A stretch of 64,000 nt of DNA from Bacillus sp. F19. Lineage in GTDB: Bacteria; Bacillota; Bacilli; Bacillales; Bacillaceae. A program made the translations under genes and the position numbers. Shown one piece after another: positions 20,394 through 34,906 of this stretch. Below the pieces are notes generated by a model that was not told the origin of the DNA, searched no databases, and was given only the letters and a program-made list of their open reading frames with translations. Position 1 is the first letter of the stretch, and every line of letters begins with the position of its first letter. The stretch is from contig CP085710.1 in NCBI GenBank assembly GCA_023823795.1, forward strand, positions 1,514,001-1,578,000, given 5' to 3'.

Positions 20394-20537
20394 GATACCA
20401 CATCCTTCGAGTTTTTTTCTAAGATTTCACTTTATCATACAAGCAAAGTATATTTCTCATAAAATAGTTCTATTTTTAACTAGTCTAATTTTCCCTGAAA
20501 AAAAGTTACCGATGTTTCTAATATGTAGTGCTAAAGC

Positions 20538-20564
20538 GAAAAAGACTCATTCGGTAAATGAGTC
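20538..20564 (-). terminator. Rho-independent terminator of the has operon
   Basis: On the minus strand GACTCATT pairs with AATGAGTC and is followed by TTTTTCGC, 25 bases beyond the stop of the UDP-glucose dehydrogenase gene. Confidence 0.8.
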
Positions 20565-20588
20565 CTTCCTTTAAAAGAGGATAATCTA

Positions 20589-21926
20589 TTAAATGACAGC
20601 GGCCACTCTGTTTTCCCGTATATTTAATAGGCGTTCTCTTCCAACCGAAATATATTCAACTTCCAGATTGAAAAGATCTTCACTTGTATAACAATTGCGT
20701 CCGTCGAAAATGATTGGCTCGTTCATGAACAGGGTGGAAAGGATGAGCGTTTTTTCTACGATTTCTTTCCACTCTGTCAAAATGAACACAACGTCTGCTT
20801 GTTTTATTGCTTCCTCGATTTGATCGGCATACAGCACTTCCTCAGGCAGAACTTTTTTTGCATTATTCGCAGCGATTGGATCATATCCGATCACTTCTGC
20901 TCCTTCTTCCACGAGTTCGCTGGCAACTGAGATGCTGGCTGCTTCTCTCATATCATCTGTTTCAGGTTTGAAAGCAAGCCCCAATAGAGCGACTTTTTTT
21001 CCTGTTAGTGTTCCGAAGCGCTCTTTTGCTTTTCTCACAAGAAGAGTCTTTTGCTTTTCATTTACTGTAATGACAGACTTCAATAAATGAAAATCATGAT
21101 TGTAGTCCTCGGAGATTTTCACAAGGGCCTGGGTATCTTTAGGGAAGCAAGAACCTCCGTATCCAATCCCTGCGTTCAGGAATTTGTTTCCGATCCTTGA
21201 GTCCATGCCGATTCCTTTGGCGACCTCTTCGATATGGGCGTTTGTTTTTTCAGAAAGATTGGCAATTTCATTTATGAATGAAATCTTTGTTGCCAGGAAA
21301 GCATTAGATGCATATTTGATCATTTCTGCACTGTGAAGGCTTGTTCGCAAGATAGGCAGTCCAAATGACTTGTTGATTTCTTCCACAATGTCTCCTGCTT
21401 CTTGATTGTCTGTTCCGATCACGATGCGGTCCCCATTAAAGGAATCATGGATGGCCGATCCTTCACGTAAGAACTCAGGATTGGATACAACTTCTGCACA
21501 GACGTTTTCTTGAAGATTGGACATCACTAATTGACGTACTTTCGCATTAGTACCGATCGGCACTGTACTCTTCGTCACTACCACCACATTTCTCGTGATG
21601 TTCTCTCCGATGTTGCGGGCAGCGTTGAACACATAGGTCAGATCTGCTGCACCGTCTTCACCTTGCGGGGTGCCTACAGCAATATAGATTACTTCTTTGT
21701 CTTTAAGGCCAATGATGGAATTGTTTGTGAATTCAAGGCGGCCAGCCGCACAATTTTTCTTCATTAGCTCTTCTAATCCTGGTTCATAGATAGGAGAAAT
21801 TCCTTTTTTAAGCTGATCAACCTTCTCTAGATTGGTATCAATGCATGTTACCTCATGTCCGATTTCTGAAAGGCAAACACCCGTCACAAGACCGACATAA
21901 CCCGTTCCAATAATAGCAATTTTCAT
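20589..21926 (-). CDS. ugd: UDP-glucose 6-dehydrogenase (HasB/TuaD type)
   Basis: This 445-aa enzyme oxidises UDP-glucose to UDP-glucuronate using two NAD+, supplying one of the two precursors of hyaluronan. The Rossmann motif IGTGYVGLVTGVCLSEIGHE is at residues 6-25, and the catalytic Cys lies in GIGYGGSCFPKD at about 260. A central helix with SAEMIKYASNAFLATKISFI and the C-terminal UDP-binding domain (LGLAFKPETDDMREAASI, about 325-342) complete the family plan. AGGAGGA precedes the ATG. It is last of three same-strand genes (synthase, galU, ugd) with gaps of about 45-60 bases. It could also serve teichuronic acid synthesis, but no tua genes are here. Confidence 0.93.
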   Translation of the reverse strand: MKIAIIGTGYVGLVTGVCLSEIGHEVTCIDTNLEKVDQLKKGISPIYEPGLEELMKKNCAAGRLEFTNNSIIGLKDKEVIYIAVGTPQGEDGAADLTYVFNAARNIGENITRNVVVVTKSTVPIGTNAKVRQLVMSNLQENVCAEVVSNPEFLREGSAIHDSFNGDRIVIGTDNQEAGDIVEEINKSFGLPILRTSLHSAEMIKYASNAFLATKISFINEIANLSEKTNAHIEEVAKGIGMDSRIGNKFLNAGIGYGGSCFPKDTQALVKISEDYNHDFHLLKSVITVNEKQKTLLVRKAKERFGTLTGKKVALLGLAFKPETDDMREAASISVASELVEEGAEVIGYDPIAANNAKKVLPEEVLYADQIEEAIKQADVVFILTEWKEIVEKTLILSTLFMNEPIIFDGRNCYTSEDLFNLEVEYISVGRERLLNIRENRVAAVI

Positions 21927-21986
21927 CGTTTTTCCTCCTCAAAAAGTCGCTATTTCCTCAAGTATCCTCAGTAAACTATTGTTATG

Positions 21987-22880
21987 TTAAGAGCTGGAGA
22001 CGAGTTCTTTTTCTGCCATAAGCTCTTTAAGATAATCTCTCACATTCTCACTCAAATCCGGACGATGCAGGGAGAAATCAATCGTTGCTTTGATAAATCC
22101 GAATTTATCCCCCACATCATATCTTTTTCCAGAGAACTTATACGCCAGTACATTTTGTGTTTCGTTTAAAATTTTGATCGCATCCGTCAGTTGAATTTCA
22201 TTACCGGAACCCGGCGGCAACATTTCTAAAATCGGCAAGATATCTGGTGTCAGCACGTAGCGTCCCATAATGGCATAATTGGATGGTGCACATTCAGTCT
22301 CCGGTTTTTCGACAACGGTTGAAATGGCGACAAGTTGTTCATCAAGCATGTTGTCGAGGGGGGCGACGATTCCATACTTGGATACATCCTCTGCCGGAAC
22401 CTCCTGTACGCCTAATACGGATGACTGATAGATATTAAAGACGTCCAGCAGCTGCTTTAAGCAAGGCGTTTCAGACTGGACAATGTCGTCCCCAAGCAAA
22501 ACAGCAAATGGCTCGTTGCCTATAAAACGGCTCGCACAGCCAATCGCATGACCAAGGCCTTTTGGTTCTTTTTGACGAACATAATGGATGTTCGCCAAGT
22601 TAGAGATGCCTTGAATTTCTTCCAATCTATTGAATTTTTCTTTTTTAAAGAGAGTTTCTTCTAATTCATAGGATTTGTCAAAATGATCTTCAATCGCGCG
22701 TTTTCCTCTGCCGCTGATAATGAGAATATCTTCAATGCCAGATTTGACAGCTTCCTCTACGATATATTGAATGGTTGGCTTATCTACAATAGGCAGCATT
22801 TCCTTAGGTTGAGCTTTTGTAGCCGGCAAAAATCTTGTACCTAAACCAGCTGCAGGAATGATAGCTTTACGAACTCTCAT
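21987..22880 (-). CDS. galU: UTP--glucose-1-phosphate uridylyltransferase (GalU/HasC)
   Basis: The 297-aa enzyme makes UDP-glucose from UTP and glucose-1-phosphate. The nucleotidyltransferase signature [20 protein letters not shown] is at the N-terminus, then [26 protein letters not shown] at about 130, and [19 protein letters not shown] near 265. It is close in sequence to GtaB of B. subtilis. I place the start at ATG 22880; the ATG three codons earlier abuts the AAGGAG site and is unlikely. In the hasACB arrangement this gene is hasC and feeds the dehydrogenase downstream. A housekeeping gtaB probably exists elsewhere in the genome, making this a dedicated copy (inference). Confidence 0.92.
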
Positions 22881-22924
22881 TTCAAACATCTCCTTAGAAA
22901 TTCGTATTTTACGTTACGCTCTGC

Positions 22925-24286
22925 TTAGCCGCGAGTGCCCCAAGAAGTTGAACGAAGTGTCAACAGTGCCCAGAAACGCATTGGGCATAGGATTACAAGG
23001 AATAGAATTCCATAGATCGGCGCAAGCAGGAAGGTGAATGGCCGCTTGTAAGCGTAGAAAACATTTCGCGCATAAGCAGATATCACCACGTATGCCAGGT
23101 AATAAACGAGCATAATTAGTCCCATCGTAGACGATGTATAATAAATCGCAAAAATCAGCGATACTCCAAAGGCCAGCCACAAGAACATTTCGAGTACTAC
23201 CCACACAAACACATTCGGTTTTTGCAATCCGATCTTCAAGGCGATCAAGCTTTCTCTGAAAAAGGATTTGTTCCAGCGATTTTGCTGCTTGATCAGTGTT
23301 TTAAGGCTTGTCGGTGCATCTGTGATACATCGGGCCGTTGATTGATATAACGTCTTTCCTTCCCGGATCGCATAGTTCGTTAGACAGCGGTCGTCTCCAA
23401 GCTGCACTTGTTGTCCCAGGAATGTCTGACTTCCATAATGTTCTAAATTTTTCATGACGACTTCGCGCCGGTAAGCACTAAGCGGTCCACTGCAAACCAA
23501 TACATTGTTCGTAACGGAATGCGCTGCACGCTCGACACGAAATGCATTGTCATACCGCATGTCAATTAGGCGAGTCAGAACATTGTCCGTACGGTTTCTG
23601 ATGTTTACATGTCCCGTTGTTGCCATTACTTCCTTGTCATTGAGAGGTTTTAACAACTCTCTAACCGCATTCGGGAATACCGTACAATCTGAATCGACAG
23701 TAATGAATATATCTCCGGCAGCTCTTTCAAATGCCCAGATTTGTGCATGACGCTTCCCCTGATTTTTCGGCAGGCGGTGCACGATAAGATTCGGCATTTG
23801 GAAGGAAGGGTTATCCTTTTTGATTTCCGTTAACGTCGCTCCAACTCCAGCTTTTAAATTATCTTGTAATTTCAGAACAGCGTGATAGGCGGAAACTTCT
23901 TTACTTCCATCATCAATGACAAAAATTTCATGAACCGGATAGTCCTGCTTCAATATACTTTCGATTGTTCCCAATACTGCATGAGGCTCTTCATTATAGG
24001 AAGGTATGATGACAGAGACCTTCAGATCAGGCGGGTCTTCCATGATTTCCTGGTATTTAAAAGATAAAAGCATTTTTCCTAATAAGTAACTGATCATGAC
24101 AGCACCGTAAATTCCTATAGTTAAGTTCAGCTTATCTGAAGCTGTCCAGTTCACATAGAAAAGGGCCGAGACCGTCAGCAGAAACAACGTAATAACAAAT
24201 GTTTTCTCCCTCATAGAAAGTTTCTTCTGAGTTTGAAGGGATACTGCTGCCATTCCACCTGAAAGATCTTGTTCCATTTTGGCCAT
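22925..24286 (-). CDS. hasA: Class I hyaluronan synthase (HasA-like), GT2
   Basis: The 453-aa membrane glycosyltransferase has two N-terminal helices (about 28-45 and 56-76), a cytosolic GT2 domain and three or four C-terminal helices (from about 357). GT2 motifs are intact: IDDGS (124-128), VDSD (197-200), GDDR (297-300) and QQNRW (334-338). Long stretches agree with streptococcal HasA as I remember it, e.g. GKRHAQ.WAFER, NVLTRL.D.RYDNAF.VERAA, LVCSGPLS.YRREV and KQQNRWNKSFFRES, plus the C-terminal S.SWGTR. NodC/chitin synthase-like enzymes share the motifs but not these segments. It should polymerise UDP-GlcNAc and UDP-GlcA and extrude the chain. Length exceeds the usual 417-420 because of an N-terminal extension and an insert at about 140-163. 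It is first in the operon with GAGAGGAG before ATG. Confidence 0.88.
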   Translation of the reverse strand: MAKMEQDLSGGMAAVSLQTQKKLSMREKTFVITLFLLTVSALFYVNWTASDKLNLTIGIYGAVMISYLLGKMLLSFKYQEIMEDPPDLKVSVIIPSYNEEPHAVLGTIESILKQDYPVHEIFVIDDGSKEVSAYHAVLKLQDNLKAGVGATLTEIKKDNPSFQMPNLIVHRLPKNQGKRHAQIWAFERAAGDIFITVDSDCTVFPNAVRELLKPLNDKEVMATTGHVNIRNRTDNVLTRLIDMRYDNAFRVERAAHSVTNNVLVCSGPLSAYRREVVMKNLEHYGSQTFLGQQVQLGDDRCLTNYAIREGKTLYQSTARCITDAPTSLKTLIKQQNRWNKSFFRESLIALKIGLQKPNVFVWVVLEMFLWLAFGVSLIFAIYYTSSTMGLIMLVYYLAYVVISAYARNVFYAYKRPFTFLLAPIYGILFLVILCPMRFWALLTLRSTSWGTRG

Positions 24287-24479
24287 TCGAATTCTCCTCT
24301 CTCACCGTAAATTTAAATCATAGCTGGCTGGCTTTACTCTCCCCAATTCTGATTTCCGTGACGAGTAGTTCACACAACCGAGTTTATGAAAGGCTTCAAA
24401 GTCTTGCAATCTATCTTTTTACCCTGTGACTATCATCACTATTTTTTGAGTGAATTGAAATCATCCCTTTAGTAACAGC

Positions 24480-24497
24480 ATTGGAAACGCTTTCAAA
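24480..24497. promoter_or_regulatory. cre box (CcpA site) upstream of hasA
   Basis: ATTGGAAACGCTTTCAAA fits the catabolite-response element consensus WWTGNAARCGNWWWCAWW at every position and is nearly palindromic. It lies about 195 bases upstream of the hasA start and about 490 upstream of the ABC gene on the other strand. Effect (repression or activation) cannot be told without the promoter position. Confidence 0.7.
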
Positions 24498-24986
24498 TTA
24501 GTTTTTCATAATTCTTCCACTATGTAACATGATTGAAATATTTTCCACTAATCCGATCTTATAAGTATTCACTTGCGTTATGAAAGACCTTTAGAGGTCA
24601 GACGTTTGTCCCCAATCTTTACAATCAAAAAGTTTTTGTAATATTTCAGAAAGGAATAGAGTTGAATTTTTTTCTATTTTTTTCATTTCGTGTATTTTCT
24701 ACATTTTTGGGAGATTTTTTGACAAAATTATTTAAAAAATGAGACATGAGGGCTAACCCTTGTTTGATGAATGCGCTTTCAATTCTAATTTCTTCCAATA
24801 CGTATGTGATAGATATCCCTTTTTACGATTTCACTCCTGCTTGTCGGTAAATTTGTATGTAAATACGGGACAAATTCTTTGTGAAAAAGGGTTCATACTT
24901 TTCCATCATTCTCTTCGGCGTCTGTTGCAGGGTCCCTATTTGAGTGCTATATATGGGGAGAGTTGTTCCCTGAAAGGAGCCTTTCT
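24498..24986. other. Divergent intergenic region between has operon and ABC genes
   Basis: No gene supported. TTGACA at about 24719-24724 with AGACAT 17 bases later may be a promoter for the ABC genes. A short plus-strand frame (24760-24990) lacks a ribosome site and protein-like content and is ignored. Confidence 0.35.
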
Positions 24987-25652
24987 ATGATAGAAGTGAA
25001 AAATTTATCGAAAAAATATCCTAACGGAGAACATCAGGAGTACGCATTGAAGGACGTTCAATTCGTAGTGAATAAGGGAGAATTGCTCGGGATCTTCGGA
25101 AAATCAGGAAGCGGGAAATCTACCTTGTTAAATATTCTTTCCGGCATAGAGGCTCCGACAACCGGAACCGTGAAAATAGATGGAAAGGATATCGCCGGAT
25201 TTTCAAACAGAGCCCTGACAAAATGGAGAGGAGCAAATGTTGGGATCGTGTTTCAATCCTTTCATCTTATTCCAACCCTGACCCTGGTGGAAAATGTGAT
25301 GCTTCCGATGGAGTTCTCTAAAAATCGAAAACGAAAGAGACAGCGTGCTTTGAACCTTTTAGAGCAAACCGGATTATTAATGAAAGCAAATCAGTTTCCG
25401 GAATCTGTATCAGGCGGGGAAAGACAGAGAACGGCCATCGCCAGGGCACTTGCCAATGATCCTCCGGTAATTGCTGCAGATGAACCTACGGGTAATCTGG
25501 ACTCTCAAACATCCAAAGAGATTTTTAACCTCTTCCAGATACTTGCCGAGACCGGTAAAACAGTACTGTTCGTCACACATGATCTCGATTTTTATGGGAA
25601 GGTCTCAAGAAGACTCCATGTTCAGGATGGATCCGTATATGAAGCGGAGTGA
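24987..25652 (+). CDS. ABC transporter ATP-binding protein (LolD/MacB type)
   Basis: The 221-aa ATPase has Walker A GKSGSGKST (about 39-47), Q-loop FQSFHLIPTLTLVENVMLP, signature SGGERQRTAIARAL (about 140), Walker B VIAADEPTGNLDSQ and the H-loop VTHD. The EPTGNLD form marks the MacB/LolD/FtsE class that works with FtsX-like permeases to drive mechanical work or release of extracytoplasmic molecules rather than ordinary uptake. AAAGGAG precedes the ATG. It is followed after 4 bases by its permease, so the two form one unit. Location next to the has genes suggests a role in the cell envelope or export, but this is inference only. Confidence 0.9.
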   Translation: MIEVKNLSKKYPNGEHQEYALKDVQFVVNKGELLGIFGKSGSGKSTLLNILSGIEAPTTGTVKIDGKDIAGFSNRALTKWRGANVGIVFQSFHLIPTLTLVENVMLPMEFSKNRKRKRQRALNLLEQTGLLMKANQFPESVSGGERQRTAIARALANDPPVIAADEPTGNLDSQTSKEIFNLFQILAETGKTVLFVTHDLDFYGKVSRRLHVQDGSVYEAE

Positions 25653-25656
25653 TTGA

Positions 25657-27981
25657 ATGCCTATATATTTGAGACTTGCCTTGAGAAGCTTTTTTCATCA
25701 AAAAACAAAAGCATTATTAATAATAGGTTCTTTTCTTTTTTGCTTGGTTTCAGTTGGAACACTGGTCAACTCGAAATACTTGTTTCAGCAGCTGCTGCAG
25801 ACCAGCCAGCAAGAATCAGCCATTGCGGATATAACCTATTACACTGGTCATTTTAATAAGGAAATCGATTTTATCTCTTCTATGAAAGGAGTCCAACATG
25901 CTGAAGCAAAGACGCAGCTAAGAAGCCGTGCAAAGCTGGATGGAAACTATATAAATCTTCAATTACTGGTAAAACCAAATTCGCTTTATGAGATTAATAA
26001 AATTCAGCTCATCAAGGGTTCTTCTTTAGAGAATAAAGATATTTGGATAGAAGCATCCACTTCCGAGAAAACGGGTATCAACCTGGGTGAAAAAATGGAA
26101 ATTATCCTTCCTAATAATCAAAAAGGAACTTCTCTGTCTATGACAGGAGTCGTTCAAGATCCATCAAGAATTCCTACGAAGTACAGCGGAATCGGATATG
26201 GCTATATTTCGGAAGCAGCGGCGAAGGAACTGAAGATCCCTCTTTCGAAGAACATGATCCACATGACATTGAAAGCCGGTTATAACGAGAAGGATGTTGT
26301 TCAGAAAGTACAAAAACGACTTGAAGCTAACGGAATCGCTGTCTACAGAATTGAAACCTCTTCTGAAACGTTTTTCATTAGAGAAACAATGGTTAACTCG
26401 TTATTGAATCTCTTTATTTTACTCGGTATTTTGGCATTCGCTCTTGGATTCATCTTAATCGTACATCTTTTCTATCGCATACTATCCGAAGATACCTATT
26501 CACTGAGCATTCAAAAAGTTGTTGGAGCAAAAGATTCACATCTTTGGAAGCAATACGTTTTATTGATCATCGTGATCGGAACGCTGTTAAGTATGATGTC
26601 AATTCCGATTATAAGTCTTGTTTCACGGTATTTCGTTTCCTTCTTGGGAGAAGAATTGAATTTCGGCGGCGGATTTTCACAATGGATATCGCCAAGACTT
26701 GCGATATCGTTGTTCATCCTATCATTCAGCCTGCCTTATTTAGGTGCGATTGTACCTGTCAGAAGCTTGATATCATCCCCAATAGCGGAAGGATTGAAAA
26801 GGTCTGGACAGTTGAACATGAAGAAAGCGGGAAAAAGCCGCAGACGTTTTTTTCACCTATCACTTCTGTCATTCCGAAACACTTTATCAAAAAAATCCCA
26901 ATCACTCATGAACATCATCATGCTTTCCTTTGGAGGAGCCGTCATTATTGCGTGCTTCTCATTGCATCAGTCCCTTCAGCATTTAATGAATGATATGGAT
27001 GATTTTTGGCAGCATGATGTTGAATGGTCTGTAAACAGCCCGCTTCCAAAAGAAGATATCACTTCTCTTGCCGGAGAGATCGATGGAGTAAGCAAAGTTG
27101 AAGGATGGACGAAAAGAAATACAGAGGTCATGGATCCTTCTTCATCTGATCATATAAATTCGCTGCTATACTCACTGCCGGCATCATCAGAATTCATAAA
27201 TCCAGAACTATTAAAAGGCCGGTGGCTGAGACCTTCACAACCTGATGAAATCGTGATTAACACAGAGCTGGAAGAAAAAATCGGACCTATTTCACCTGGG
27301 GACACCATCCGTTTGCGGATAGGACAAGAAAACAAGGAATGGAGGGTTGCCGGTATTATGAAAGGCTCCCTTACAGGCCCATCTGTTTACATGGATCAGA
27401 AATCCTATCAAGGGTGGCTGGGTCAACAATCCATTAATCGTCTGCTGGTGGAAAAACAAAGGAATCAGGGCGTTCGATCTCTTCTGAATGAAGGGGAAAA
27501 TGAATTATCTTCTGCAGGAGTATTTGTGGAAGGGTCCGAAACGGTTGTGGAAATGAATTCCCGTCCGAAAGAAATGATCCGCCTCGTCATCATGACGATC
27601 GTATGCATTGGATTGCTGTTTTCTATCGTTGGGATAGCCAATCTCATGATTGCTGTCAGCATAAATATTTACGAGAGAACAAAAGAGATTGGGATTATGA
27701 GAAGCCTTGGAGGCTCAAATGCAAAGATATATGGCTTATTTATTTGGGAAAGCATTTTCATAGCACTGCTGGGCTGGGGATTAGCCTGTGTCATGTCCTA
27801 TCCCCTTAACTGGCTGCTCGGATGGAAAATCGGAGATTCCTTACTGCAATTCTCTTTACAGCCGCACCTCTCAAAGGAAGGAAGTTTGATTTGGCTATGC
27901 GTCAGTATTCTGATCGGATTTGCAGCAAGTATCGTCCCTGTTCGGAAGACTCTCAAAAAGAATATAAACGAATTACTGTAA
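25657..27981 (+). CDS. FtsX/MacB-like ABC transporter permease, 774 aa
   Basis: The product has a first membrane helix at about 15-40, a large extracytoplasmic domain (about 45-240), three helices around 250-375 (LLGILAFALGFILIVHLFYR; VLLIIVIGTLLSMMSIPIIS), then a second half with another helix (about 420-440), a second extracytoplasmic domain and three C-terminal helices with the FtsX signature (ERTKEIGIMRSLGGSNAKIY at about 670). This double FtsX-domain plan is typical of long Gram-positive permeases of the MacB class. It pairs with the ATPase four bases upstream. Substrate unknown; antimicrobial-peptide resistance and envelope remodelling are common roles in the family. Confidence 0.88.
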   Translation: MPIYLRLALRSFFHQKTKALLIIGSFLFCLVSVGTLVNSKYLFQQLLQTSQQESAIADITYYTGHFNKEIDFISSMKGVQHAEAKTQLRSRAKLDGNYINLQLLVKPNSLYEINKIQLIKGSSLENKDIWIEASTSEKTGINLGEKMEIILPNNQKGTSLSMTGVVQDPSRIPTKYSGIGYGYISEAAAKELKIPLSKNMIHMTLKAGYNEKDVVQKVQKRLEANGIAVYRIETSSETFFIRETMVNSLLNLFILLGILAFALGFILIVHLFYRILSEDTYSLSIQKVVGAKDSHLWKQYVLLIIVIGTLLSMMSIPIISLVSRYFVSFLGEELNFGGGFSQWISPRLAISLFILSFSLPYLGAIVPVRSLISSPIAEGLKRSGQLNMKKAGKSRRRFFHLSLLSFRNTLSKKSQSLMNIIMLSFGGAVIIACFSLHQSLQHLMNDMDDFWQHDVEWSVNSPLPKEDITSLAGEIDGVSKVEGWTKRNTEVMDPSSSDHINSLLYSLPASSEFINPELLKGRWLRPSQPDEIVINTELEEKIGPISPGDTIRLRIGQENKEWRVAGIMKGSLTGPSVYMDQKSYQGWLGQQSINRLLVEKQRNQGVRSLLNEGENELSSAGVFVEGSETVVEMNSRPKEMIRLVIMTIVCIGLLFSIVGIANLMIAVSINIYERTKEIGIMRSLGGSNAKIYGLFIWESIFIALLGWGLACVMSYPLNWLLGWKIGDSLLQFSLQPHLSKEGSLIWLCVSILIGFAASIVPVRKTLKKNINELL

Positions 27982-28007
27982 CCATTATTTCCTTGGGGGA
28001 TTGATTC

Positions 28008-29168
28008 ATGAAACACGTGCTAGTACTGCCGCTTTTTCAAATGGAATCAGGTCACCACCGAACGGCTGATGCATTAATAGAAGCCTTTCATAAACAGGAC
28101 CCTGACATCGAATGTGAAAAAGTGGATTTTCTTAGTTATGCAAATACGTCACTGGAAAAGTTCACATCACATCTTTACTTAAGATGGATAACGAGGTGGC
28201 CATCTGCCTACAGCTTGATGTACTCTTCTTTCTTCCAAAGAAACAAAACCTTTTTGCATTCTCTTTATGAGGCCCTTTTTTTAGAGAAGATGGAGCAGCT
28301 TCTGCAAGAGAAGCAGCCGGACGTCATCGTTTGTACCCATAGCTTCTCCTCTTTTTTAGTAGATAAGCTGAAAGGCTATGGGGTCGATACAGCCCCTGTC
28401 GTCAATATATATACAGACTTTTTTGTTAACGGGGTTTGGGGAAAACAGCACGTTAATATGCATATTGTGCCTACAGCCGAAATGAAGCAAAAGGTGATAA
28501 ACGAAGGTGCAGATCCCCAATCTGTCAAGATTTCAGGGATATTGACGAATGATGCGTTTAAAAGGGGTAAACCAATGAAGAAGGACAGCAAGCTTCATAT
28601 CCTCGTCAGCGGCGGAAGTCTGGGATTGGGGGATTCATTGCAGTCCCTTGTTTCGAAGTCTGCCAACCATATTGAGTATAAAATCCTTTGCGGTCAAAAT
28701 ATGAACCTATTTGATCATGTTCAAGCCTTGCAGTGTCCAAATATTACAGGAATTTCGTACATTACGGAAGCAGAACAAATGAACCAACTATATAACTGGG
28801 CAGATGCCCTGATTACAAAGCCAGGCGGAATAACGGTTGGAGAAGCAATCAAAAAAATGCTTCCGATATTTGTTCATTCTGTGCTGCCGGGTCAAGAGGA
28901 AAAGAATATGAGTTATTTGGAAGGAGAAGGATTGGTCTGGAGATTGGATCCAAACCGTCCAGTCGATCATCAAGTGCTGACTGTCATGAATGATGCAAGC
29001 ACCCAATTCTTAATGAAAAAATCAAGATATCAATTCTTAAGGAACATAGATGTCTCATCCTGTAAGGAACTTGCACGTTTATTGACCGAAACATATTTAC
29101 AGGAAAATCAAAATGAACAGCTTCAATTTATTGATGATTTATTTTCGAAGTTATATAAAAGCCTTTAG
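28008..29168 (+). CDS. UgtP-like (MGDG synthase family) glycosyltransferase
   Basis: The 386-aa GT-B enzyme opens with VLVLPLFQMESGHHRTADAL, the MGDG-synthase N-domain in which GSGHH-type residues contact the lipid acceptor. VCTHSFSSFLVDKL and NIYTDFFVNGVW follow, and the C-domain has LVSGGSLGLGDS and the UDP-binding ITKPGGITVGEAI (about 268-280). UgtP adds glucose from UDP-glucose to diacylglycerol. Several Bacillaceae carry extra paralogues like this one, whose acceptor is not known. It starts 26 bases after the permease with GGGGG upstream, so it is probably co-transcribed with the ABC genes. UDP-glucose from the adjacent galU is the plausible donor. Confidence 0.82.
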   Translation: MKHVLVLPLFQMESGHHRTADALIEAFHKQDPDIECEKVDFLSYANTSLEKFTSHLYLRWITRWPSAYSLMYSSFFQRNKTFLHSLYEALFLEKMEQLLQEKQPDVIVCTHSFSSFLVDKLKGYGVDTAPVVNIYTDFFVNGVWGKQHVNMHIVPTAEMKQKVINEGADPQSVKISGILTNDAFKRGKPMKKDSKLHILVSGGSLGLGDSLQSLVSKSANHIEYKILCGQNMNLFDHVQALQCPNITGISYITEAEQMNQLYNWADALITKPGGITVGEAIKKMLPIFVHSVLPGQEEKNMSYLEGEGLVWRLDPNRPVDHQVLTVMNDASTQFLMKKSRYQFLRNIDVSSCKELARLLTETYLQENQNEQLQFIDDLFSKLYKSL

Positions 29169-29169
29169 T

Positions 29170-29349
29170 TTATTGCTTCTTAAACAAGTGATAGTAAATA
29201 AAACAACAGCCGGTTAACATGATGCCACTATAAATAATGTGGTAAACGTCCCGAAAGACTTCAAAAAAAACAGGCATATTAATTACTCGCTTTTTATCAT
29301 ATTGTTTTCCTTTTATTGCTTGTATGAAACCTGTTCTGTATACATTCAT
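29170..29349 (-). CDS. Hypothetical 59-aa single-helix protein
   Basis: Minus-strand frame from ATG 29349, ending VYHIIYSGIMLTGCCFIYYH LFKKQ, with one hydrophobic helix near the C-terminus and a positive tail. No convincing ribosome binding site; an internal Met at codon 25 is an alternative start. No family recognised. It could be a chance ORF in a 313-base gap between two larger genes. Confidence 0.25.
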   Translation of the reverse strand: MNVYRTGFIQAIKGKQYDKKRVINMPVFFEVFRDVYHIIYSGIMLTGCCFIYYHLFKKQ

Positions 29350-29481
29350 TATCTTACATCAACCGGATCTATCAATCCATAGTAAAAGACTTCAAATCTA
29401 CTATCGGTATAAAAGAACTATCGTCTATTTTCATTTTTGTTCATCAAACCCGGACTTCCAACATGGAGGAGGAAAAATAAC

Positions 29482-30597
29482 ATGACAGCTAAAACAGGAG
29501 AACAAAAATCACCCGCACAAAAAAAATATATTTTTGAAATTCACTTCTTGCGCGCCTTTGCCTGTTTACTAGTGGTAGGCGTTCACGTATCTGCAACAAA
29601 CTATGGAATGAACGAAGAGACATGGAACTGGTTCACGTATTTCATGAATCAATATGGCCGCTTCGGTACAACCATTTTTGCCGTCATCAGCGGTTTCCTG
29701 CTCTTTTATCAAGTAAAAAGAAGAGGATTTGAGCTGGGCCGATTCCTGCAATCGAGGTTTTTAAAGATCGTCATCCCTTTTCTGATTTGGAGTGCAGCTT
29801 ACCGCTGCCTTCTCTACTATTACGATAGGCAGATACTCGGTGACCCTGTGGACGAGATAACGAAAATTCTAATGGGAGAATCATTTTACCACTTATATTT
29901 CGTAGCAATCGTTGTTCAGTTCTATCTTATTTTTCCATTCTTGCAGAGGATTTTCCGGACACAGACATTAGTATTGGTCTTCACGGTCCTCGCGTTCATC
30001 ATCAGCTATAACTTATATGGCTACACCCCTGGAATCGAAGGAAAGCTTGGCGAGTTCCTAGCGAGCAAATCCTTTATGCCCATCTGGATTTTTTATTTTG
30101 CCTTTGGCGGCTTTATGGCTTACTTCTGGGATGAGATCGTCGGATTCGCCACGAAACGCCCTTGGAAAATGCTTGCTGTGATCCTGCTGGTTTCAGCTGG
30201 TGCAGTCTATGAGTATCAAACAATTGGATACGTATCAAACCGAAGATTGACGAATCTGTTTAACATTCCTGCCCTGAGCATTGCAATTGTCGGGATTTAC
30301 CCGCTGCTGGCTAAATTCAGCATCGTGAAAAAGACGTTAACCGTGATCGGTCAATATTCCATGGGGATCTATTTAGTTCATCCAATGATTCTTTATTTAT
30401 TTGCCCGCCTTCTTCCGGATGCTTACTGGCAGTTAGAATATGTTCCTCTGATGTTCATTGCCGTAATGGTGATTGCATCGGTATTTATTCGTATTCTTCA
30501 ATTCATCCCGCTCGGCGGATTCATTATTCCTGTACCAAAAATCAAGAATAGTAAACTGCAGCACTCCATACAGCCGGAGCAAAAAGAATCGGCGTAA
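29482..30597 (+). CDS. Membrane acyltransferase family 3 protein
   Basis: The 371-aa product is an acyltransferase-3 protein with about ten membrane helices. The family signature FEIHFLRAFACLLVVGVHVS near the N-terminus holds the conserved Arg and the catalytic His (in VGVHVS). Further hallmarks are RFGTTIFAVISGFLLFYQVK and SRFLKIVIPFLIWSAAYRCL. Such enzymes O-acetylate or otherwise acylate exopolysaccharides, teichoic acids or peptidoglycan at the outer membrane face. In this neighbourhood it may modify the has polysaccharide, which would be unusual because hyaluronan is normally unmodified. ATG 29482 is chosen for the GGAGGAGG site; the frame extends upstream without one. A terminator follows. 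Confidence 0.87.
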   Translation: MTAKTGEQKSPAQKKYIFEIHFLRAFACLLVVGVHVSATNYGMNEETWNWFTYFMNQYGRFGTTIFAVISGFLLFYQVKRRGFELGRFLQSRFLKIVIPFLIWSAAYRCLLYYYDRQILGDPVDEITKILMGESFYHLYFVAIVVQFYLIFPFLQRIFRTQTLVLVFTVLAFIISYNLYGYTPGIEGKLGEFLASKSFMPIWIFYFAFGGFMAYFWDEIVGFATKRPWKMLAVILLVSAGAVYEYQTIGYVSNRRLTNLFNIPALSIAIVGIYPLLAKFSIVKKTLTVIGQYSMGIYLVHPMILYLFARLLPDAYWQLEYVPLMFIAVMVIASVFIRILQFIPLGGFIIPVPKIKNSKLQHSIQPEQKESA

Positions 30598-30608
30598 AAT
30601 TTATCAGG

Positions 30609-30636
30609 AGCAGTCACCATGACTGCTTTCTTTTTT
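30609..30636 (+). terminator. Rho-independent terminator
   Basis: AGCAGTCA pairs with TGACTGCT, followed by TTCTTTTTT, just after the acyltransferase stop. Confidence 0.8.
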
Positions 30637-30786
30637 GGCACGATAAAGGCCTAAGGTCTATGCTTTGATAAGTTAATAGGAAAATATGATTAAAAAATCC
30701 TTTCTTTTTTGTGTAAAAGTTCTATACCTGTCCGATACTTTTGGAGGGTAGAGTTTTTATTTTATACAAAAAGAAAGGAAAACTTC

Positions 30787-32013
30787 ATGAGCAAAAGAAA
30801 AGGACTGATTGTTTCTTCCATGATTTTAATGTGTGTTTGTGCTGTCTGGGTGTCAGGATTTGTTAATGCAGAGAATGGTATGATCAATGTTAAAGAGTAT
30901 GGAGCTGCCGGTGACGGGATATCAAATGACACCGCGGCCATCAAAAAAGCTCTCTATTACGGGAAGAATAAAACCGTTTATTTTCCAGAGGGTACCTATC
31001 TCATCACCGATACGCTGACGGTAAAGGAAAATACGGAAGTGTATGGAATAGATGCTGTCATAAAGGCGAACGGACCCGGAGATACGATGTTCAGAATTTA
31101 TGGCGACAATATTACAATCCATGACTTGAAGATAGATGGCAATGATACGTTTTTACGAGGCATGACGGTGATAAATGGCACCGGCAATCTGAAGGTAACG
31201 GATGTCCTACTTACCCATTTCAGCCAGCCTGATCATTCCAAGATGTCTACGTCTACACCGATCGCCATACGGATAGAAGGGGGAGTTCAGGATGTGCTGT
31301 TCGATCACCTCACCATCAAACATGTGTATGCCAAAAACATGACATCAAGCGCCGGCTGGAACCATAAAACAGCGCGCGGGATTCTAATCAGTCCTGCCTT
31401 ATCTTCTCAACCGATGAGCAAGAACATTACAATCCAGCATTCATCGATATCAGACATTGGGCCAAAGGATGATGGAGACGGCATCGTCGTCCAAGGATTT
31501 CAAGATGACGTACATGTTACAATCAGGCACAATACATTTGAAAAAAACCATAAACGAGCCATCAAAATCCAATCACCGGGGGCGATCATTGCTAACAATC
31601 ATATACGCAACAGCTTCCATCAGAATAATTTCTATGACACGTATAAAGAAACAAACGAGTATGATATGTGGTCTGCCATATCGGTCTACAGCGATAATGT
31701 CGAAATCACAGAAAATACGATCGACGGTATAGGGAGATATTCTGCAGCCATTGACATCGCCGGGGGAAATAACATTAAAGTCATCAATAATTCTGCAGCC
31801 AACCGTGAATCTTCACAATCCTCCGATGTGATACGGATCAACAAAGGCAATGATGGCACAAATCAATTCTCCGACATTTCCATAAAGAACAATTCCCTGA
31901 AAAATGGCCGCTATGGAATTAACGTTGCAGCTGAAGTAAAACAGCTTACCCTTTCAGGAAATACCTATAACAATGTGAGCCGACCAACAAGCAATGGGAT
32001 ACAGGCGAAATAA
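30787..32013 (+). CDS. Secreted right-handed beta-helix (pectate-lyase-3-like) protein
   Basis: The 408-aa product has a signal peptide (about 1-28, cleaved near VNAENG) and opens with INVKEYGAAGDGISNDTAAI KKAL and TVYFPEGTYLITD, the typical first coil of pectate-lyase-3/polygalacturonase-like beta helices. Repeated N-rich turns (NITIQHSSISD, NNFYDT, VEITENTIDGI, IKVINNSA) continue to the end. Such folds bind or cleave long polysaccharides; epimerases, lyases and hydrolases all occur. Placed between the hyaluronan synthase block and a PL8 lyase, it may act on the same polymer, but no catalytic residues can be assigned. ATG 30787 follows AAGAAAGG. The ORF extends 26 codons upstream without a credible start. 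Confidence 0.82.
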   Translation: MSKRKGLIVSSMILMCVCAVWVSGFVNAENGMINVKEYGAAGDGISNDTAAIKKALYYGKNKTVYFPEGTYLITDTLTVKENTEVYGIDAVIKANGPGDTMFRIYGDNITIHDLKIDGNDTFLRGMTVINGTGNLKVTDVLLTHFSQPDHSKMSTSTPIAIRIEGGVQDVLFDHLTIKHVYAKNMTSSAGWNHKTARGILISPALSSQPMSKNITIQHSSISDIGPKDDGDGIVVQGFQDDVHVTIRHNTFEKNHKRAIKIQSPGAIIANNHIRNSFHQNNFYDTYKETNEYDMWSAISVYSDNVEITENTIDGIGRYSAAIDIAGGNNIKVINNSAANRESSQSSDVIRINKGNDGTNQFSDISIKNNSLKNGRYGINVAAEVKQLTLSGNTYNNVSRPTSNGIQAK

Positions 32014-32019
32014 ACTAAC

Positions 32020-32051
32020 AAAAATAGCTTCCTCAGTGAAGCTATTTTTTT
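32020..32051 (+). terminator. Rho-independent terminator
   Basis: AAAAATAGCTTC pairs with GAAGCTATTTTTTT after the beta-helix gene. The PL8 gene beyond therefore has its own promoter. Confidence 0.85.
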
Positions 32052-32227
32052 GTTAACGAAACATTAACTCTTTCCTCACCTTTGTAACAAAACTTTTAAA
32101 AATTGTAATGTCCGCCCTTTTATTTTACATCCCCTTTTCATTTTGGATTTGAGTCATTATGGGGCCCCTCGATATGTTATGTTAGAAATGAATTTTTCTA
32201 TCATTCATACAAACAAAAGGATGACAG

Positions 32228-34342
32228 GTGAGACAATTGTACATATCCAAGAAGACAACGCTGATATCTCTGACAATCATTCTAATGGCAGCAATTATAA
32301 TGGTCTTTACAATAGATCATGAACGGGAAAAGCCTCAAAGAGAAGATTACCTGCCACAGCTTAAAAAACGGTATTGGTCCCACTTAACGGACTCTGGCAG
32401 CGATATTGACATTTCTTCTCTGCAAAAGAAACTGAACAGTGAAGGCAAATTCTCGGATATAGCTTATAAAGATAAGGCGGAGAATCCAAGGGAAACTGTC
32501 AGGCACCTGGAACGATTGGAAACCATGGCAATAGCCTATCATTCTGAAAATCACGCGAGCTATCATGATAAAAAACTGAAAAACGAAATCCTGGCAGGAC
32601 TGGAATACTGGAATCAGCACCCTGTGCAAGCTGAAAATTGGTGGTGGAACAGGCTGAGGATCCCTATGATCTTAAGTAATATCCTATTTCTAATGGATCA
32701 GGAACTCCCAAAATACACCGAGGAAACTTCCATAAAACTGCTGCAGGAATATACCGAATCCGAATCACCTCCTTTACACGGGGTGAACTTGATAGAAGCT
32801 GAAAAAGTTACCTATATTACCGGTTTACGGCAAGAAGATTCCGTGAAGATCAATGAAGCCGTCTCAGCAATTAAAGAATCATTAAAGGTAAGCAGTATCG
32901 GCATTCAGCCTGATATGACCTTTCATCAGCACGAACAATCCGTTCAGACCGGTACATATGGGATTCGCTACTCATTAGAGACAGCCGGCATGTTTACCTT
33001 TGTTCACGGAACACCGTACTCTTTTTCCAATGAGGACTATCAATTGTTATCTCACTTTATACTGGATGGAATTCAATGGTTCATTGCTGATGACACCATT
33101 GACTACACCTCATTAGGGAGAGGGATTACAAGAAAGAATAATCAAATACAAGATGTGATATCCATCGCCAGGATGATGGAAAAGCTCCCGACCAGCCGGA
33201 AAGATGAATTCGAGCGCATGATCGGACGCTTGGAAGGGAAGCGTCCCCCGTTTGTTGGCAATAGAGCTTATAACACATCCGGACTGATGGTTCATCATCA
33301 AAAGGATTACTATAGCTCGGTTCGAATCTTGCCTGAGGAAATGAACTCCAGTGAACCGTATTACAACGGAGAAGGGATCAATAATCGTCATATGGCGGAC
33401 GGAGCCAGTCTCTTCTATTTGAGGGGCAACGGGTATGCAGGAATCTTCCCAGTTTGGGATTGGCGCAAGATCCCCGGAACAACCGTTGTCCATAATGATG
33501 AAAAGAAAGAACCGCTTTCAGGCGAAAACAATGAAACGCTCATGTTCAGTGATGGCAAAAATGGGATCTCTGCAATGAATATGAATTATAAAGAACTATC
33601 AGCAAAGAAATCATGGTTCTTTTTCGAGGACACGATCGCAGCTCTCGGAGCCGATATACAATCCAATAGCAGCCATCCGGTCGTCACGACCATCGACCAG
33701 CGGATTTGGAATCACCCTGTAGAAACGTCGGAAACATCCAGCTTGGCAGATTCCACTCACCAAACGATTGACAAACCCAGCTGGGTGTATCACGATGGCA
33801 TCGGCTACCTGTTTCCCGGAAACAACGACCGCATCCACCTGTTGCTTAACAAACGGGAAGCCAGCTGGAAAAAAATCAATCAGCGTTATGATGGAGAATC
33901 CCCTGTACAAAAAAAGGTACTGGGGTTATGGATCAATCACGGATCCAAACCAGAGCATAATCGCTATCAATATATCGTTGTACCCGGTGCCTCTAAAGAG
34001 GAATTCAATACGATAAAAAACGATTCCCCCATTCAGATCATTAGCAATAACGCCAATGTCCAGGCAGTCAAAAACACCAATCTCCAGTTAACTGAGGCCG
34101 TATTCTGGAATGCTGATACGTTCAAAACGCCAGATGGCGTAAAAATCAGCATGAACCAGCCTGCTGCCCTCCAGCTTAAACGGGACGGAAAGGAATGGAT
34201 CATCAAAGCAAAAGCGGCAAATGATTCTAAAAAAGAGCTTAAGTTAATCGTTAAAAAGGAAATAGACAACAGGGAGAGAACACTGATCGGTTGGGAAGAT
34301 AAGGAAGGATTCATCAGTGGAAAATATAAGGCTCAATTTTGA
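32228..34342 (+). CDS. Polysaccharide lyase family 8 (hyaluronate lyase-like), membrane-anchored
   Basis: The 704-aa product has an uncleaved-looking N-terminal helix (about 11-29) followed by an alpha/alpha toroid and beta domains of PL8. The aromatic patch NWWWNRLRIP is at 137-146. The catalytic His235 and Tyr244 lie in FHQHEQSVQTGTYGIRYS with the same nine-residue spacing as the His/Tyr pair of pneumococcal hyaluronate lyase, and Asn187 in HGVNLIEAEKV fits the catalytic Asn. NNRHMADGASLFYLRGNGYA and DWRKIPGTTV are further PL8 signatures. Members cut hyaluronan, chondroitin or xanthan by beta-elimination. Next to a hyaluronan synthase it most likely trims or releases the capsule polymer. 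It is shorter than streptococcal lyases and lacks cell-wall anchors. GTG start after AAAAGGA. Confidence 0.87.
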   Translation: MRQLYISKKTTLISLTIILMAAIIMVFTIDHEREKPQREDYLPQLKKRYWSHLTDSGSDIDISSLQKKLNSEGKFSDIAYKDKAENPRETVRHLERLETMAIAYHSENHASYHDKKLKNEILAGLEYWNQHPVQAENWWWNRLRIPMILSNILFLMDQELPKYTEETSIKLLQEYTESESPPLHGVNLIEAEKVTYITGLRQEDSVKINEAVSAIKESLKVSSIGIQPDMTFHQHEQSVQTGTYGIRYSLETAGMFTFVHGTPYSFSNEDYQLLSHFILDGIQWFIADDTIDYTSLGRGITRKNNQIQDVISIARMMEKLPTSRKDEFERMIGRLEGKRPPFVGNRAYNTSGLMVHHQKDYYSSVRILPEEMNSSEPYYNGEGINNRHMADGASLFYLRGNGYAGIFPVWDWRKIPGTTVVHNDEKKEPLSGENNETLMFSDGKNGISAMNMNYKELSAKKSWFFFEDTIAALGADIQSNSSHPVVTTIDQRIWNHPVETSETSSLADSTHQTIDKPSWVYHDGIGYLFPGNNDRIHLLLNKREASWKKINQRYDGESPVQKKVLGLWINHGSKPEHNRYQYIVVPGASKEEFNTIKNDSPIQIISNNANVQAVKNTNLQLTEAVFWNADTFKTPDGVKISMNQPAALQLKRDGKEWIIKAKAANDSKKELKLIVKKEIDNRERTLIGWEDKEGFISGKYKAQF

Positions 34343-34366
34343 TCAAAATCTGTCTTAGAAAAGGAA

Positions 34367-34394
34367 AACCAGTTCAATAACTGAACTGGTTATT
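34367..34394 (+). terminator. Rho-independent terminator
   Basis: AACCAGTTCA pairs with TGAACTGGTTA after the PL8 gene. Confidence 0.75.
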
Positions 34395-34516
34395 TACTAT
34401 TCTTTTCTTTATATTCAAAATTTTTCCTCAATAGAAAATTTTTCAATGTTATTCCCAAAATACCGCTATTAGTACTTATTTGACAAAACCTTTAATCCTT
34501 ATTAAAATTTAATTGA

Positions 34517-34846
34517 ACATTCAATCAAAATGATGTATCAAGCTATAACAAAAATTACTTAGGTCTTGCAAAATATGACTTTAAAACAAACAAATATGAA
34601 TTTTTTGATGCCAAAACCGGTGAAAGCCGCGGTGATTACGGATATTTTGATGTTGTACATGGTAATAAGTTAAGAGCCCATGTTTCACTAGGAATGAAGT
34701 ATGGTGCAGTTCTCGAACTAACAGAGCTAAATGAATATAAATTTACTTATAAAAGAAACGGTAAAGATAAAGATGGTAATGACATAACCATAACCGTTGA
34801 GCATATTCCATATGATGGTGATTACAAACTAAAATTCACTAAATAA
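34517..34846 (+). pseudogene. DUF4822-like protein, 5' end lost
   Basis: An open frame after a TGA at 34514 encodes about 109 residues: [57 protein letters not shown] and [16 protein letters not shown]. This resembles the DUF4822 domain of secreted Bacillus proteins. No ATG, ribosome site or signal peptide is left; the region before it contains a palindrome ATTGAACATTCAAT like a TetR-type operator. I infer fusion of a foreign promoter region to the gene's 3' half by deletion. A terminator follows at the normal distance. Confidence 0.6.
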
Positions 34847-34874
34847 TTTAAATAGGTCTTGACGTGTAGTCAAG

Positions 34875-34906
34875 AAGGGAATGGATTTCTCCATTCCCTT
34901 TTTGTT
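34875..34906 (+). terminator. Rho-independent terminator
   Basis: AAGGGAATGGA pairs with TCCATTCCCTT followed by TTTG, after the DUF4822-like remnant. Bases 34907-35180 hold no gene; a GCGCAATTC/GAATTGTGC hairpin with a pyrimidine tail lies at about 35070-35105. Confidence 0.75.

What the first reader, a model, noticed from the sequence alone, without database searches (positions are those of the whole stretch)
20589..34342. hasACB-type hyaluronan synthesis operon beside a PL8 lyase in a Bacillaceae genome
Synthase, galU and UDP-glucose dehydrogenase occur in the order hasA-hasC-hasB on one strand. The synthase shares long identical-looking blocks with streptococcal class I HasA, not just GT2 motifs. 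To my knowledge hasACB in Bacillus is described mainly from virulence plasmids of the B. cereus/B. anthracis group. Here the genes adjoin a secreted beta-helix protein and a membrane-anchored PL8 enzyme with the catalytic Asn/His/Tyr set, an acyltransferase, a UgtP-like enzyme and a MacB-type ABC pair. This suggests one locus to build, perhaps acylate, and cut the polymer.
Basis: partly seen in the sequence, partly recalled or inferred. Interest (0 to 1): 0.8.

Follow-up and report, generated by a model that had tools for sequence, protein, structure and literature searches.

The report
Bacillus hyaluronan-type locus with transporter pair
A 14-kilobase gene block in a Bacillus relative very probably makes a hyaluronan-type coat sugar, and in its close relatives it nearly always travels with a transporter and a lipid-sugar enzyme whose role is still unknown.

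Summary
At 20589-24286 (-) lie ugd, galU and a 453-aa GT2 synthase in hasACB order; at 24963-34342 (+) lie a MacB-type ABC pair, a UgtP-like GT28, an acyltransferase, a beta-helix protein and a membrane-anchored PL8 lyase. The synthase groups with streptococcal-type HasA, not with NodC (AU p 8e-5). A hyaluronan-type polymer is likely; no product was tested.

The emphasis needs changing. PL8, acyltransferase and beta-helix are accessories (4, 10 and 10 of 21 loci). Conserved is a six-gene core: hasA-galU-ugd divergent from abcA-abcP-GT28. In 81 genomes of the family the ABC permease occurs in exactly the 11 that have this hasA and in 0 of the other 70. The shared intergenic region keeps a cre (CcpA)-like site, at most one mismatch, in 20 of 20 loci. 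Window 20539-34327 is 93.7% identical in a congener but lies elsewhere there; here it sits in a roughly 90-kb insertion.

A constant ABC partner is unexpected, since class I synthases are held to need none (PMC10939387). Its role (lipid handling, release, anchoring, or bystander) is inferred, not shown. New variant of a known kind.

The parts
20544..20564 (-). Inverted repeat GACTCATT..AATGAGTC just past ugd; read on the - strand it is followed by TTTTT: likely end of the hasA-galU-ugd transcript
   Evidence: Stem listed (as a + strand site); flanking bases printed, which also shows it at the same place in L017.
20589..21926 (-). ugd (hasB-like): UDP-glucose 6-dehydrogenase, TuaD-like, makes UDP-GlcA
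   Evidence: TIGR03026 447 bits; best equivalog model TuaD 553 bits, below its cut-off of 700; 21 of 21 loci.
21987..22889 (-). galU (hasC-like): UTP-glucose-1-phosphate uridylyltransferase
   Evidence: TIGR01099 391 bits, cut-off 327; 21 of 21 loci.
22925..24286 (-). hasA-like membrane GT2 synthase (class I hyaluronan synthase type)
   Evidence: solved hyaluronan synthases are the best matches, 132 bits; HasA-type clade, NodC grouping rejected.
24482..24495 (.). cre-like (CcpA) site TGGAAACGCTTTCA in the shared hasA/abcA intergenic region
   Evidence: site with at most 1 mismatch in 20 of 20 regions (exact in 9); 60 shuffles: mean 4.2 loci, max 12. Position read. Pattern recalled and chosen after seeing the alignment.
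24523..24539 (+). WalR-like tandem site with one mismatch in the window (TGTAACATGATTGAAAT)
   Evidence: exact TGTWAH-N5-TGTWAH in 9 of 21 regions (13 sites; 200 shuffles mean 0.17, max 2), not in the window; with 1 mismatch 18 of 20 (shuffles mean 4.7, max 10).
24963..25652 (+). abcA: ABC ATPase of LolD/FtsE/MacB type (probable start ATG at 24987)
   Evidence: 20 of 21 loci; start codon and ribosome-site-like AAAGGAG read.
25657..27981 (+). abcP: ABC permease of two fused MacB-like halves (TM, extracellular domain, 3 TM, twice)
   Evidence: in 11 of 81 family genomes, exactly those with near hasA.
28008..29168 (+). GT28, relative of UgtP / MGDG synthase (lipid glycosyltransferase)
   Evidence: processive diacylglycerol glucosyltransferase 151 bits; 20 of 21 loci.
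29437..30597 (+). Acyltransferase-3 membrane protein (ATG at 29482 is an alternative start)
   Evidence: 10 of 21 loci.
30709..32013 (+). Secreted or anchored right-handed beta-helix protein (ATG at 30787 likely start), activity unknown
   Evidence: 10 of 21 loci.
32228..34342 (+). Membrane-anchored PL8 lyase, chondroitinase-AC-like, complete catalytic set
   Evidence: 4 of 21 loci.
20539..34327 (.). Extent of the block shared with congener G045 (93.7% identical), placed elsewhere in that genome

Best explanation
This is a chromosomal hyaluronan-type coat locus of Bacillaceae outside the B. cereus group, carried as a compact cassette. GalU makes UDP-glucose and Ugd oxidises it to UDP-glucuronate. 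The HasA-type synthase polymerises this with UDP-GlcNAc (from the cell's general pool) and passes the chain through its own membrane channel. The divergent abcA-abcP-GT28 genes are its constant partners: GT28 most likely puts a sugar (Glc or GlcA) on diacylglycerol, and the MacB-like ABC pair, which is not built like a capsule exporter, most likely moves that lipid or helps release or anchor the chain. PL8 is a lineage-specific add-on that can trim or shed the coat; the acyltransferase and beta-helix protein are optional modifiers. A conserved cre-like site suggests carbon (CcpA) control. Shown here: gene content, clade of the synthase, core conservation, co-occurrence, site conservation, block boundaries. 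Inferred: the polymer, all enzyme specificities, the role of the ABC/GT28 pair, and regulation.
For: Synthase: seven streptococcal-type HasA at 49-53% identity (46-48% for three of them over a full-length alignment), each beside a Ugd-like gene (7 of 7), with galU within the fetched 18 kb in 5 of 5 wider loci. NodC is at 30-32% in the same alignment (4 of 4). The HasA-type clade of 27 rows has support 95/98 and a window+NodC clade is rejected, p-AU 8e-5. Supply genes: hasA-galU-ugd in 21 of 21 loci. Core: abcA and abcP 20 of 21, GT28 20 of 21. Co-occurrence: abcP at E<=1e-20 in 11 of 81 family genomes, the same 11 with near hasA, 0 of 70 others (Fisher 8e-14, ignoring relatedness; five genera). 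In L041 (Bacillus sp. HNG) the ABC pair is gone, yet GT28 stays next to hasA. abcP and GT28 distances track each other (Spearman 0.77). Regulation. Cassette. PL8; PL8 anywhere in 4 of 11 hasA+ against 3 of 70 hasA- family genomes (Fisher 0.0055).
Against: No product or activity was measured. Residues that contact UDP-GlcA in Chlorella virus HAS (Lys177, Arg341, Trp342) are matched, but 4 of 4 NodC match them too, so they do not prove GlcA use. In the first tree the clade that joins the window with streptococcal HasA had only 92/91 support. A HAS is sufficient on its own in vitro (PMC10939387, section read), so an ABC partner is not required. The five genomes with HasA-like proteins at 56-63% (L042-L046) lack abcP: four have no match at E<=1e-10 and one a 23% match. 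None of five streptococcal has loci has an abcP match. hasA and abcA distances hardly correlate (0.16), hasA and abcP only 0.47, so the two halves may not share one history. Stricter cre patterns are found in only 3 and 5 of 21 regions, and the window has no exact WalR-like site.
Confidence: 0.65

Rival explanations
1. The synthase makes another polymer, for example a Glc-GlcA chain as the pneumococcal type 3 synthase does (recalled), or a GlcNAc-only chain as NodC does. Then the locus is a sugar-polymer locus but not a hyaluronan locus.
For: galU and ugd beside a processive GT2 would also serve a type-3-like capsule (recalled); key residues are shared with NodC. No Cps3S sequence was placed in the tree.
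Against: 46-53% identity to streptococcal-type HasA against 30-32% to NodC; NodC grouping rejected; HasA-identical motifs GDDRCLTNYAI and KQQNRWNKSFFRES; V294 shared with streptococcal HasA where NodC has Ser.
Confidence: 0.13
2. The ABC pair and GT28 are bystanders: an envelope-stress or lipid module that sits next to hasA and is carried along with it, with no part in making, moving or anchoring the polymer.
For: HAS needs no ABC partner in vitro (PMC10939387, section 18); WalR-like sites fit envelope control; abcA distances do not track hasA (0.16); HasA-like genes outside this clade lack abcP.
Against: Exact co-occurrence 11 of 11 against 0 of 70 while flanking genes turn over; the pair is kept in named Rossellomorea, Metabacillus, Neobacillus, Peribacillus and Fredinandcohnia loci.
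Confidence: 0.25
3. The PL8 lyase and beta-helix protein serve to feed on outside polysaccharides and are unrelated to the cell's own polymer.
For: PL8 is beside hasA in only 4 of 21 loci and occurs in 3 hasA-less family genomes.
Against: PL8 is next to the core in all 4 members of the window's own clade and inside the block shared with G045; PL8 is commoner in hasA+ family genomes, 4 of 11 against 3 of 70.
Confidence: 0.35

Closest known systems
Streptococcal hasABC locus (class I-R HasA)
   Same: HasA-type synthase of the same clade, with a UDP-glucose dehydrogenase next to it and a UTP-glucose-1-phosphate uridylyltransferase nearby.
   Different: Order A-C-B here; the dehydrogenase is TuaD-like and only 27-32% identical to the streptococcal one; divergent ABC pair and GT28 here. 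None of five streptococcal loci (18 kb each) has an abcP or GT28 match at E<=1e-4; ABC genes seen in four of them match abcA at 28-33% and by eye look like ECF ATPases (L110) or full-length ABC exporters (L111, L113, L114).
hasACB of Bacillus cereus G9241-type plasmids
   Same: Same gene order; hyaluronidase-sensitive capsule reported there (PMC10939387 section 26, PMC6105005 passages).
   Different: Plasmid-borne there, chromosomal here. Its sequence was not fetched (virulence plasmid of a listed germ), so identity and neighbours were not compared.
Chondroitinase AC (PL8; PDB 1cb8/1hm2)
   Same: Best solved relative, 248 bits; ten of ten mapped active-site and neighbouring residues identical.
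   Different: 324 bits against the NCBIfam chondroitinase-AC cut-off of 1000; membrane anchor; substrate unknown.
MacB / LolCDE / YtrF type ABC permeases
   Same: FtsX and MacB periplasmic-core domains; best solved relatives MacB, YtrF, LolE.
   Different: Two MacB-like halves fused in one 774-aa chain; no MacA-like partner beside it; linked to a HasA-type synthase.
UgtP / MGDG synthase (GT28)
   Same: MGDG_synth domain; closest solved enzyme is a processive diacylglycerol beta-glucosyltransferase.
   Different: 145 bits against a cut-off of 500 for the UgtP-type model. Further UgtP-like genes, mostly 24-29% identical, give a match in all 81 family genomes, so this copy is an extra one.
Pasteurella class II hyaluronan system with HexABCD (PMC10939387, passage)
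   Same: Hyaluronan with an ABC transporter and a lipid link, all in one locus.
   Different: Another synthase class and another kind of transporter; the resemblance is of logic only.

Membership tests
Class I hyaluronan synthase (HasA, GT2) | Single GT2 module with DxD, GDD and QxxRW motifs and the terminal WGTR | tested here: met
Class I hyaluronan synthase (HasA, GT2) | Groups with streptococcal HasA to the exclusion of NodC | tested here: met
   95/98 support; window+NodC clade rejected, p-AU 8e-5. (long branches included): same grouping, 92/91.
Class I hyaluronan synthase (HasA, GT2) | N- and C-terminal membrane helices | tested here: met
   hydrophobic peaks near residue 38 and at 372-426; simple hydropathy only.
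Class I hyaluronan synthase (HasA, GT2) | Makes [GlcA-GlcNAc]n from both UDP sugars | not testable with these tools
   Needs an enzyme assay; the matched residues are shared with NodC.
has operon | Synthase adjacent to ugd and galU on one strand | tested here: met
   21 of 21 loci.
has operon | Dehydrogenase of the streptococcal HasB subfamily | tested here: not met
   27-32% identity to the streptococcal dehydrogenases; best equivalog model is TuaD. I do not treat this as a required feature.
NodC / chitooligosaccharide synthase | GEDR motif, NodC grouping, TIGR04242 cut-off | tested here: not met
   201 of 550 bits; GDDR in place of GEDR; grouping rejected.
PL8 polysaccharide lyase | N, middle and C PL8 domains and catalytic Asn/His/Tyr/Arg | tested here: met
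   (roles of residues recalled).
PL8 polysaccharide lyase | Cleaves hyaluronan rather than xanthan or other polymers | tested here: inconclusive
   Sequence nearest chondroitinase AC; no assay.
MacB-type (type VII) ABC transporter | FtsX plus MacB_PCD permease with LolD-like ATPase | tested here: met
MacB-type (type VII) ABC transporter | Adaptor (MacA) partner gene, as in MacAB proper | tested here: not met
   No such domain in the frames scanned between 19776 and 36690.
GT28 UgtP/MGDG synthase | MGDG_synth / GT28 family domain | tested here: met
GT28 UgtP/MGDG synthase | Glycosylates diacylglycerol | not testable with these tools
   Needs an enzyme assay.

The most novel reading that the evidence does not exclude
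A class I hyaluronan synthase with an obligate genetic partner: a fused MacB-type ABC transporter plus a lipid glycosyltransferase that together make and move a glycolipid which anchors, primes or releases the hyaluronan chain in Bacillaceae. This would be a lipid-coupled hyaluronan pathway in Gram-positive bacteria and would reopen the closed question of ABC partners for class I synthases.
Probability: 0.27. Interest if true: 0.78.

Novelty: new variant of a known kind. Interest (0 to 1): 0.56.

Why it matters
The bacterial hyaluronan synthases listed in the parts of the 2023 review that I read (PMC10939387) are from pathogens, where the polymer is seen as camouflage. A conserved chromosomal locus in many other Bacillaceae would suggest a use outside animal hosts and offer further native synthases for industry. 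The constant ABC/GT28 partner gives a system in which the ABC question, raised for Streptococcus in 2004 (cited in PMC3331846) and since called a myth (PMC10939387), can be tested by single deletions, with Bacillus sp. HNG (no ABC pair, GT28 kept) as a natural comparison.

Tried and rejected
NodC or chitin synthase reading: rejected by tree and motifs. Xanthan-lyase reading of PL8: lower score than chondroitinase AC. 'Build-acylate-cut' as the defining unit: accessories are patchy. Known RNA element: no Rfam match at gathering threshold in 18000-37000. Phosphate-starvation (PhoP) reading: strict TTHACA-N5-TTHACA sites in only 3 of 21 regions; these exceed shuffles (mean 0.07, max 1) but are the same places as WalR-like sites, so it was set aside, not excluded. 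Patterns tried: five and four; the cre form was chosen after seeing the alignment. A short block AAAAATGAGA is in 5 of 20 and was not followed. CvHAS residue mapping was printed with labels shifted by one; one search repeats it with the right numbering. CvHAS sits on a very long branch. Beta-helix activity: profile hits cover mostly the N-terminal part of many beta-helix enzymes, so it stays unassigned. Structure prediction: the job for the beta-helix alignment A4 was accepted and unfinished; the job for the permease A2 was never accepted; no fold evidence is used.

Rows dropped: one search left out 13 of the 57 rows (8 long or outgroup rows and 5 Bacillaceae rows to thin the clade). itself used part of what was held: 6 of 7 streptococcal HasA, 8 of the about 600-aa family, 5 of the lactococcal group (L016 and L093 not used). 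L083 was left out because one search lists an in-frame stop in its match. L050 and L097 were left out because of stops in the matched range; L081 was used by its annotated CDS. One search used 20 regions (L041 lacks abcA); one search used 21, with a 756-base stretch for L041. Beta-helix copies of L033 and L040 were dropped from A4 (stops in the ranges I gave).

In print: searches showed, in the rows listed (most lists capped, for instance 10 of 178 and 12 of 1,165), no paper on a hasA/ABC/GT28 locus in these genera. The nearest seen is B. endophyticus with HAS and UDP-glucose dehydrogenase (PMC6038202). Papers: PMC10939387 (sections 18 and 26 plus passages), PMC12987647 (abstract, passages), PMC3331846, PMC6038202, PMC6105005 (passages); all others as search listings only.


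Full report
OBSERVATION. The nine genes are present as described. The - strand carries hasA (22925-24286), galU (21987-22889) and ugd (20589-21926), with gaps of 35 and 60 bases and an inverted repeat followed by T's on the - strand just past ugd. The + strand carries abcA, abcP, GT28, acyltransferase-3, beta-helix and PL8.

SYNTHASE. The best solved relatives are hyaluronan synthases: 7sp7 (132 bits; the Chlorella virus enzyme) and 8smm, 'hyaluronan synthase 1' (130 bits). NCBIfam's NodC model gives 201 bits against a cut-off of 550. In 335 genomes of a family that I take to be Streptococcaceae, 16 have a match at E<=1e-15; seven of these (L082-L088) are 49-53% identical to the window protein, the other nine 27-42%. 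In a full-length alignment three of the seven are at 46-48% and four NodC at 30-32%. All seven lie beside a Ugd-like gene, and galU lies within the 18 kb fetched in 5 of 5 wider loci. A first tree (57 rows) joins the window, its Bacillaceae relatives and the streptococcal proteins with 92/91 support, together with some long-branched rows. A tree without the long branches (44 rows) gives the 27-row HasA-type clade 95/98, and a window+NodC clade without the streptococci is rejected (log-likelihood 54.6 lower, p-AU 8e-5). GDDRCLTNYAI and KQQNRWNKSFFRES are identical in L082. The UDP-GlcA contacts described for Chlorella virus HAS (Lys177, Arg341, Trp342; PMC12987647, passages) are matched at K178, R337 and W338, but 4 of 4 NodC match them too, so they do not settle the substrate. 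I did not place the pneumococcal type 3 synthase. Hyaluronan is therefore likely, not proved.

CONSERVED CORE. In the 81 genomes of the window's family, 12 have a HasA-like gene at E<=1e-40: 11 at 80% identity or more and one remote at 31%. A scan of named genomes returned 22 loci: 16 at 77-92% identity, from Rossellomorea, Metabacillus, Neobacillus, Peribacillus, Fredinandcohnia, Bacillus canaveralius and Bacillus strains without species names; five at 56-63%; and one at 27% that I take as spurious. Over 21 distinct loci, hasA, galU and ugd are in 21, abcA and abcP in 20, and GT28 in 20 (the contig of L037 ends before it). The exception for the ABC pair is Bacillus sp. HNG (L041), which has no abcP match at E<=1e-10 in its genome but keeps GT28 beside hasA. 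Beta-helix and acyltransferase are in 10 loci each (9 have both) and PL8 in 4: the window, G045, R. aquimaris and Bacillus sp. REN3. A secreted YusW-like protein (PF14039) follows ugd in 12 of 21 but not in the window. These absences hold for the flanks fetched.

CO-OCCURRENCE. abcP at E<=1e-20 is found in 11 of 81 family genomes, exactly the 11 with near hasA; 0 of the other 70 have it. Fisher p is 8e-14, but the genomes are related and fall in five genera, so the effective number is smaller. GT28 is less clean: its has-linked copies (44-100%) are in the same 11, but other copies at 36-43% are common and further UgtP-like genes, mostly 24-29%, give every one of the 81 a match. The five genomes with HasA-like proteins at 56-63% lack abcP except for one 23% match. 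One more distant HasA-like locus (L115, 58-61%) has, about 6 kb away, a 406-aa MacB-like permease (38% to part of abcP) with an ATPase (39%); this may be chance or a looser form of the same link. Pairwise distances over 19 loci (Spearman): abcP-GT28 0.77, hasA-ugd 0.76, hasA-galU 0.71, ugd-GT28 0.71, hasA-GT28 0.57, hasA-abcP 0.47, hasA-abcA 0.16, ugd-abcA 0.01.

WHAT THE PARTNERS ARE. abcP has eight hydrophobic segments arranged as TM, extracellular domain, 3 TM, twice, a tandem of the MacB design; solved relatives are MacB, YtrF and LolE. Such transporters do not resemble the ABC exporters of capsules (general knowledge). GT28's closest solved relative is a processive diacylglycerol beta-glucosyltransferase. 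I infer lipid or glycolipid handling, with a link to anchoring or release of the polymer. Against this, purified streptococcal HAS alone makes and translocates hyaluronan, and a 2023 review calls the ABC requirement a myth (PMC10939387, section 18 read; PMC3331846, passages).

PL8. The protein has all three PL8 domains and an N-terminal hydrophobic anchor. It scores 248 bits with chondroitinase AC, 134 with xanthan lyase and 84 with a solved hyaluronate lyase. W138, W139, N187, H235, Y244, R298, R302, E376, N380 and E382, ten of the ten that I mapped, match chondroitinase AC (catalytic roles recalled). PL8 (PF02278) occurs in 7 of 81 family genomes and 0 of 14 control genomes: 4 of 11 with near hasA and 3 of 70 without (Fisher 0.0055).

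REGULATION. The hasA-abcA intergenic regions (about 610-930 bases) align over 20 loci. A cre-like site with at most one mismatch lies at -166 to -222 from hasA in 20 of 20 (exact in 9; shuffles, anywhere in the region: mean 4.2 loci, max 12). Stricter cre patterns are in 3 and 5 of 21 (shuffle max 1 and 2). Exact WalR-like tandem sites occur in 9 of 21 regions, 13 sites, against a shuffle mean of 0.17 and max of 2, but at differing places and strands, and four of the nine are close relatives; the window has only a one-mismatch version. The loci share ancestry, so these counts are not independent. Patterns are recalled; only lists papers that use the WalR pattern.

CASSETTE AND ISLAND. Window 20539-34327 matches congener G045 at 93.7% as one block that ends sharply on both sides. 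The next right-hand gene group (from 38391) is collinear in G045, G050 and G046, but in G045 it lies 3.3 Mb along the contig from its has block. The left-hand neighbour shared by those three genomes lies in the window's genome at 1456658-1462081, some 90 kb before position 1552391; the three congeners have about 0.2-4 kb there. So the window's has block sits in a roughly 90-kb insertion. Of 38 open frames listed in the part left of the window, six were scanned and gave four transposase pieces, a resolvase and an ArdC-like gene. Only 2 of 8 genomes of the genus carry this hasA. The simplest reading is horizontal spread of a compact cassette; movement inside the genome is not excluded.

VERDICT. 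The more interesting fact is the constant ABC/GT28 partner. It is a new variant of a known kind; the role of the partner is open and easy to test.

Noticed in passing
13575-17246: 1223-aa KAP-type NTPase in an AT-rich stretch (26-31% G+C) with weak PifA/QatA-like defence matches, within the inserted region.
   Followed up: partly
G000:C1:1462081-1552391 (window 1-38391 is its right part): Roughly 90-kb insertion absent from three congeners, with transposase pieces, a resolvase and an ArdC-like gene.
   Followed up: partly
L018:1139-1945 (-) and 11 other loci: A secreted YusW-like protein of about 265 aa follows ugd in 12 of 21 loci but not in the window.
   Followed up: partly
L115:15674-17598: A MacB-like permease (406 aa) and ATPase lie about 6 kb from a more distant HasA-like gene: chance, or a looser form of the same link.
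   Followed up: no
L015, L016: Lactococcus and Enterococcus faecium plasmids carry a HAS-like synthase (37%) beside a nucleotide-sugar dehydrogenase.
   Followed up: partly
L054-L077: A family of synthase-like proteins of about 600 aa (29-32% identical) in Bacilli; 19 of 24 loci show a distant Ugd-like match within 1.5 kb.
   Followed up: no
L046: A contig titled Flavobacteriaceae bacterium CP2B carries a Bacillaceae-like hasA-galU-ugd (59-70% identical); probably a misassigned contig.
   Followed up: no
6822-10979: Large subtilase with PA domain and a C-terminal dockerin-like match just over the cut-off (24.7 bits, cut-off 22.9).
   Followed up: no
19776-20393: Cell-wall hydrolase gene beside the block has a 98% identical second copy at G000:C1:3114438-3115052.
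   Followed up: no
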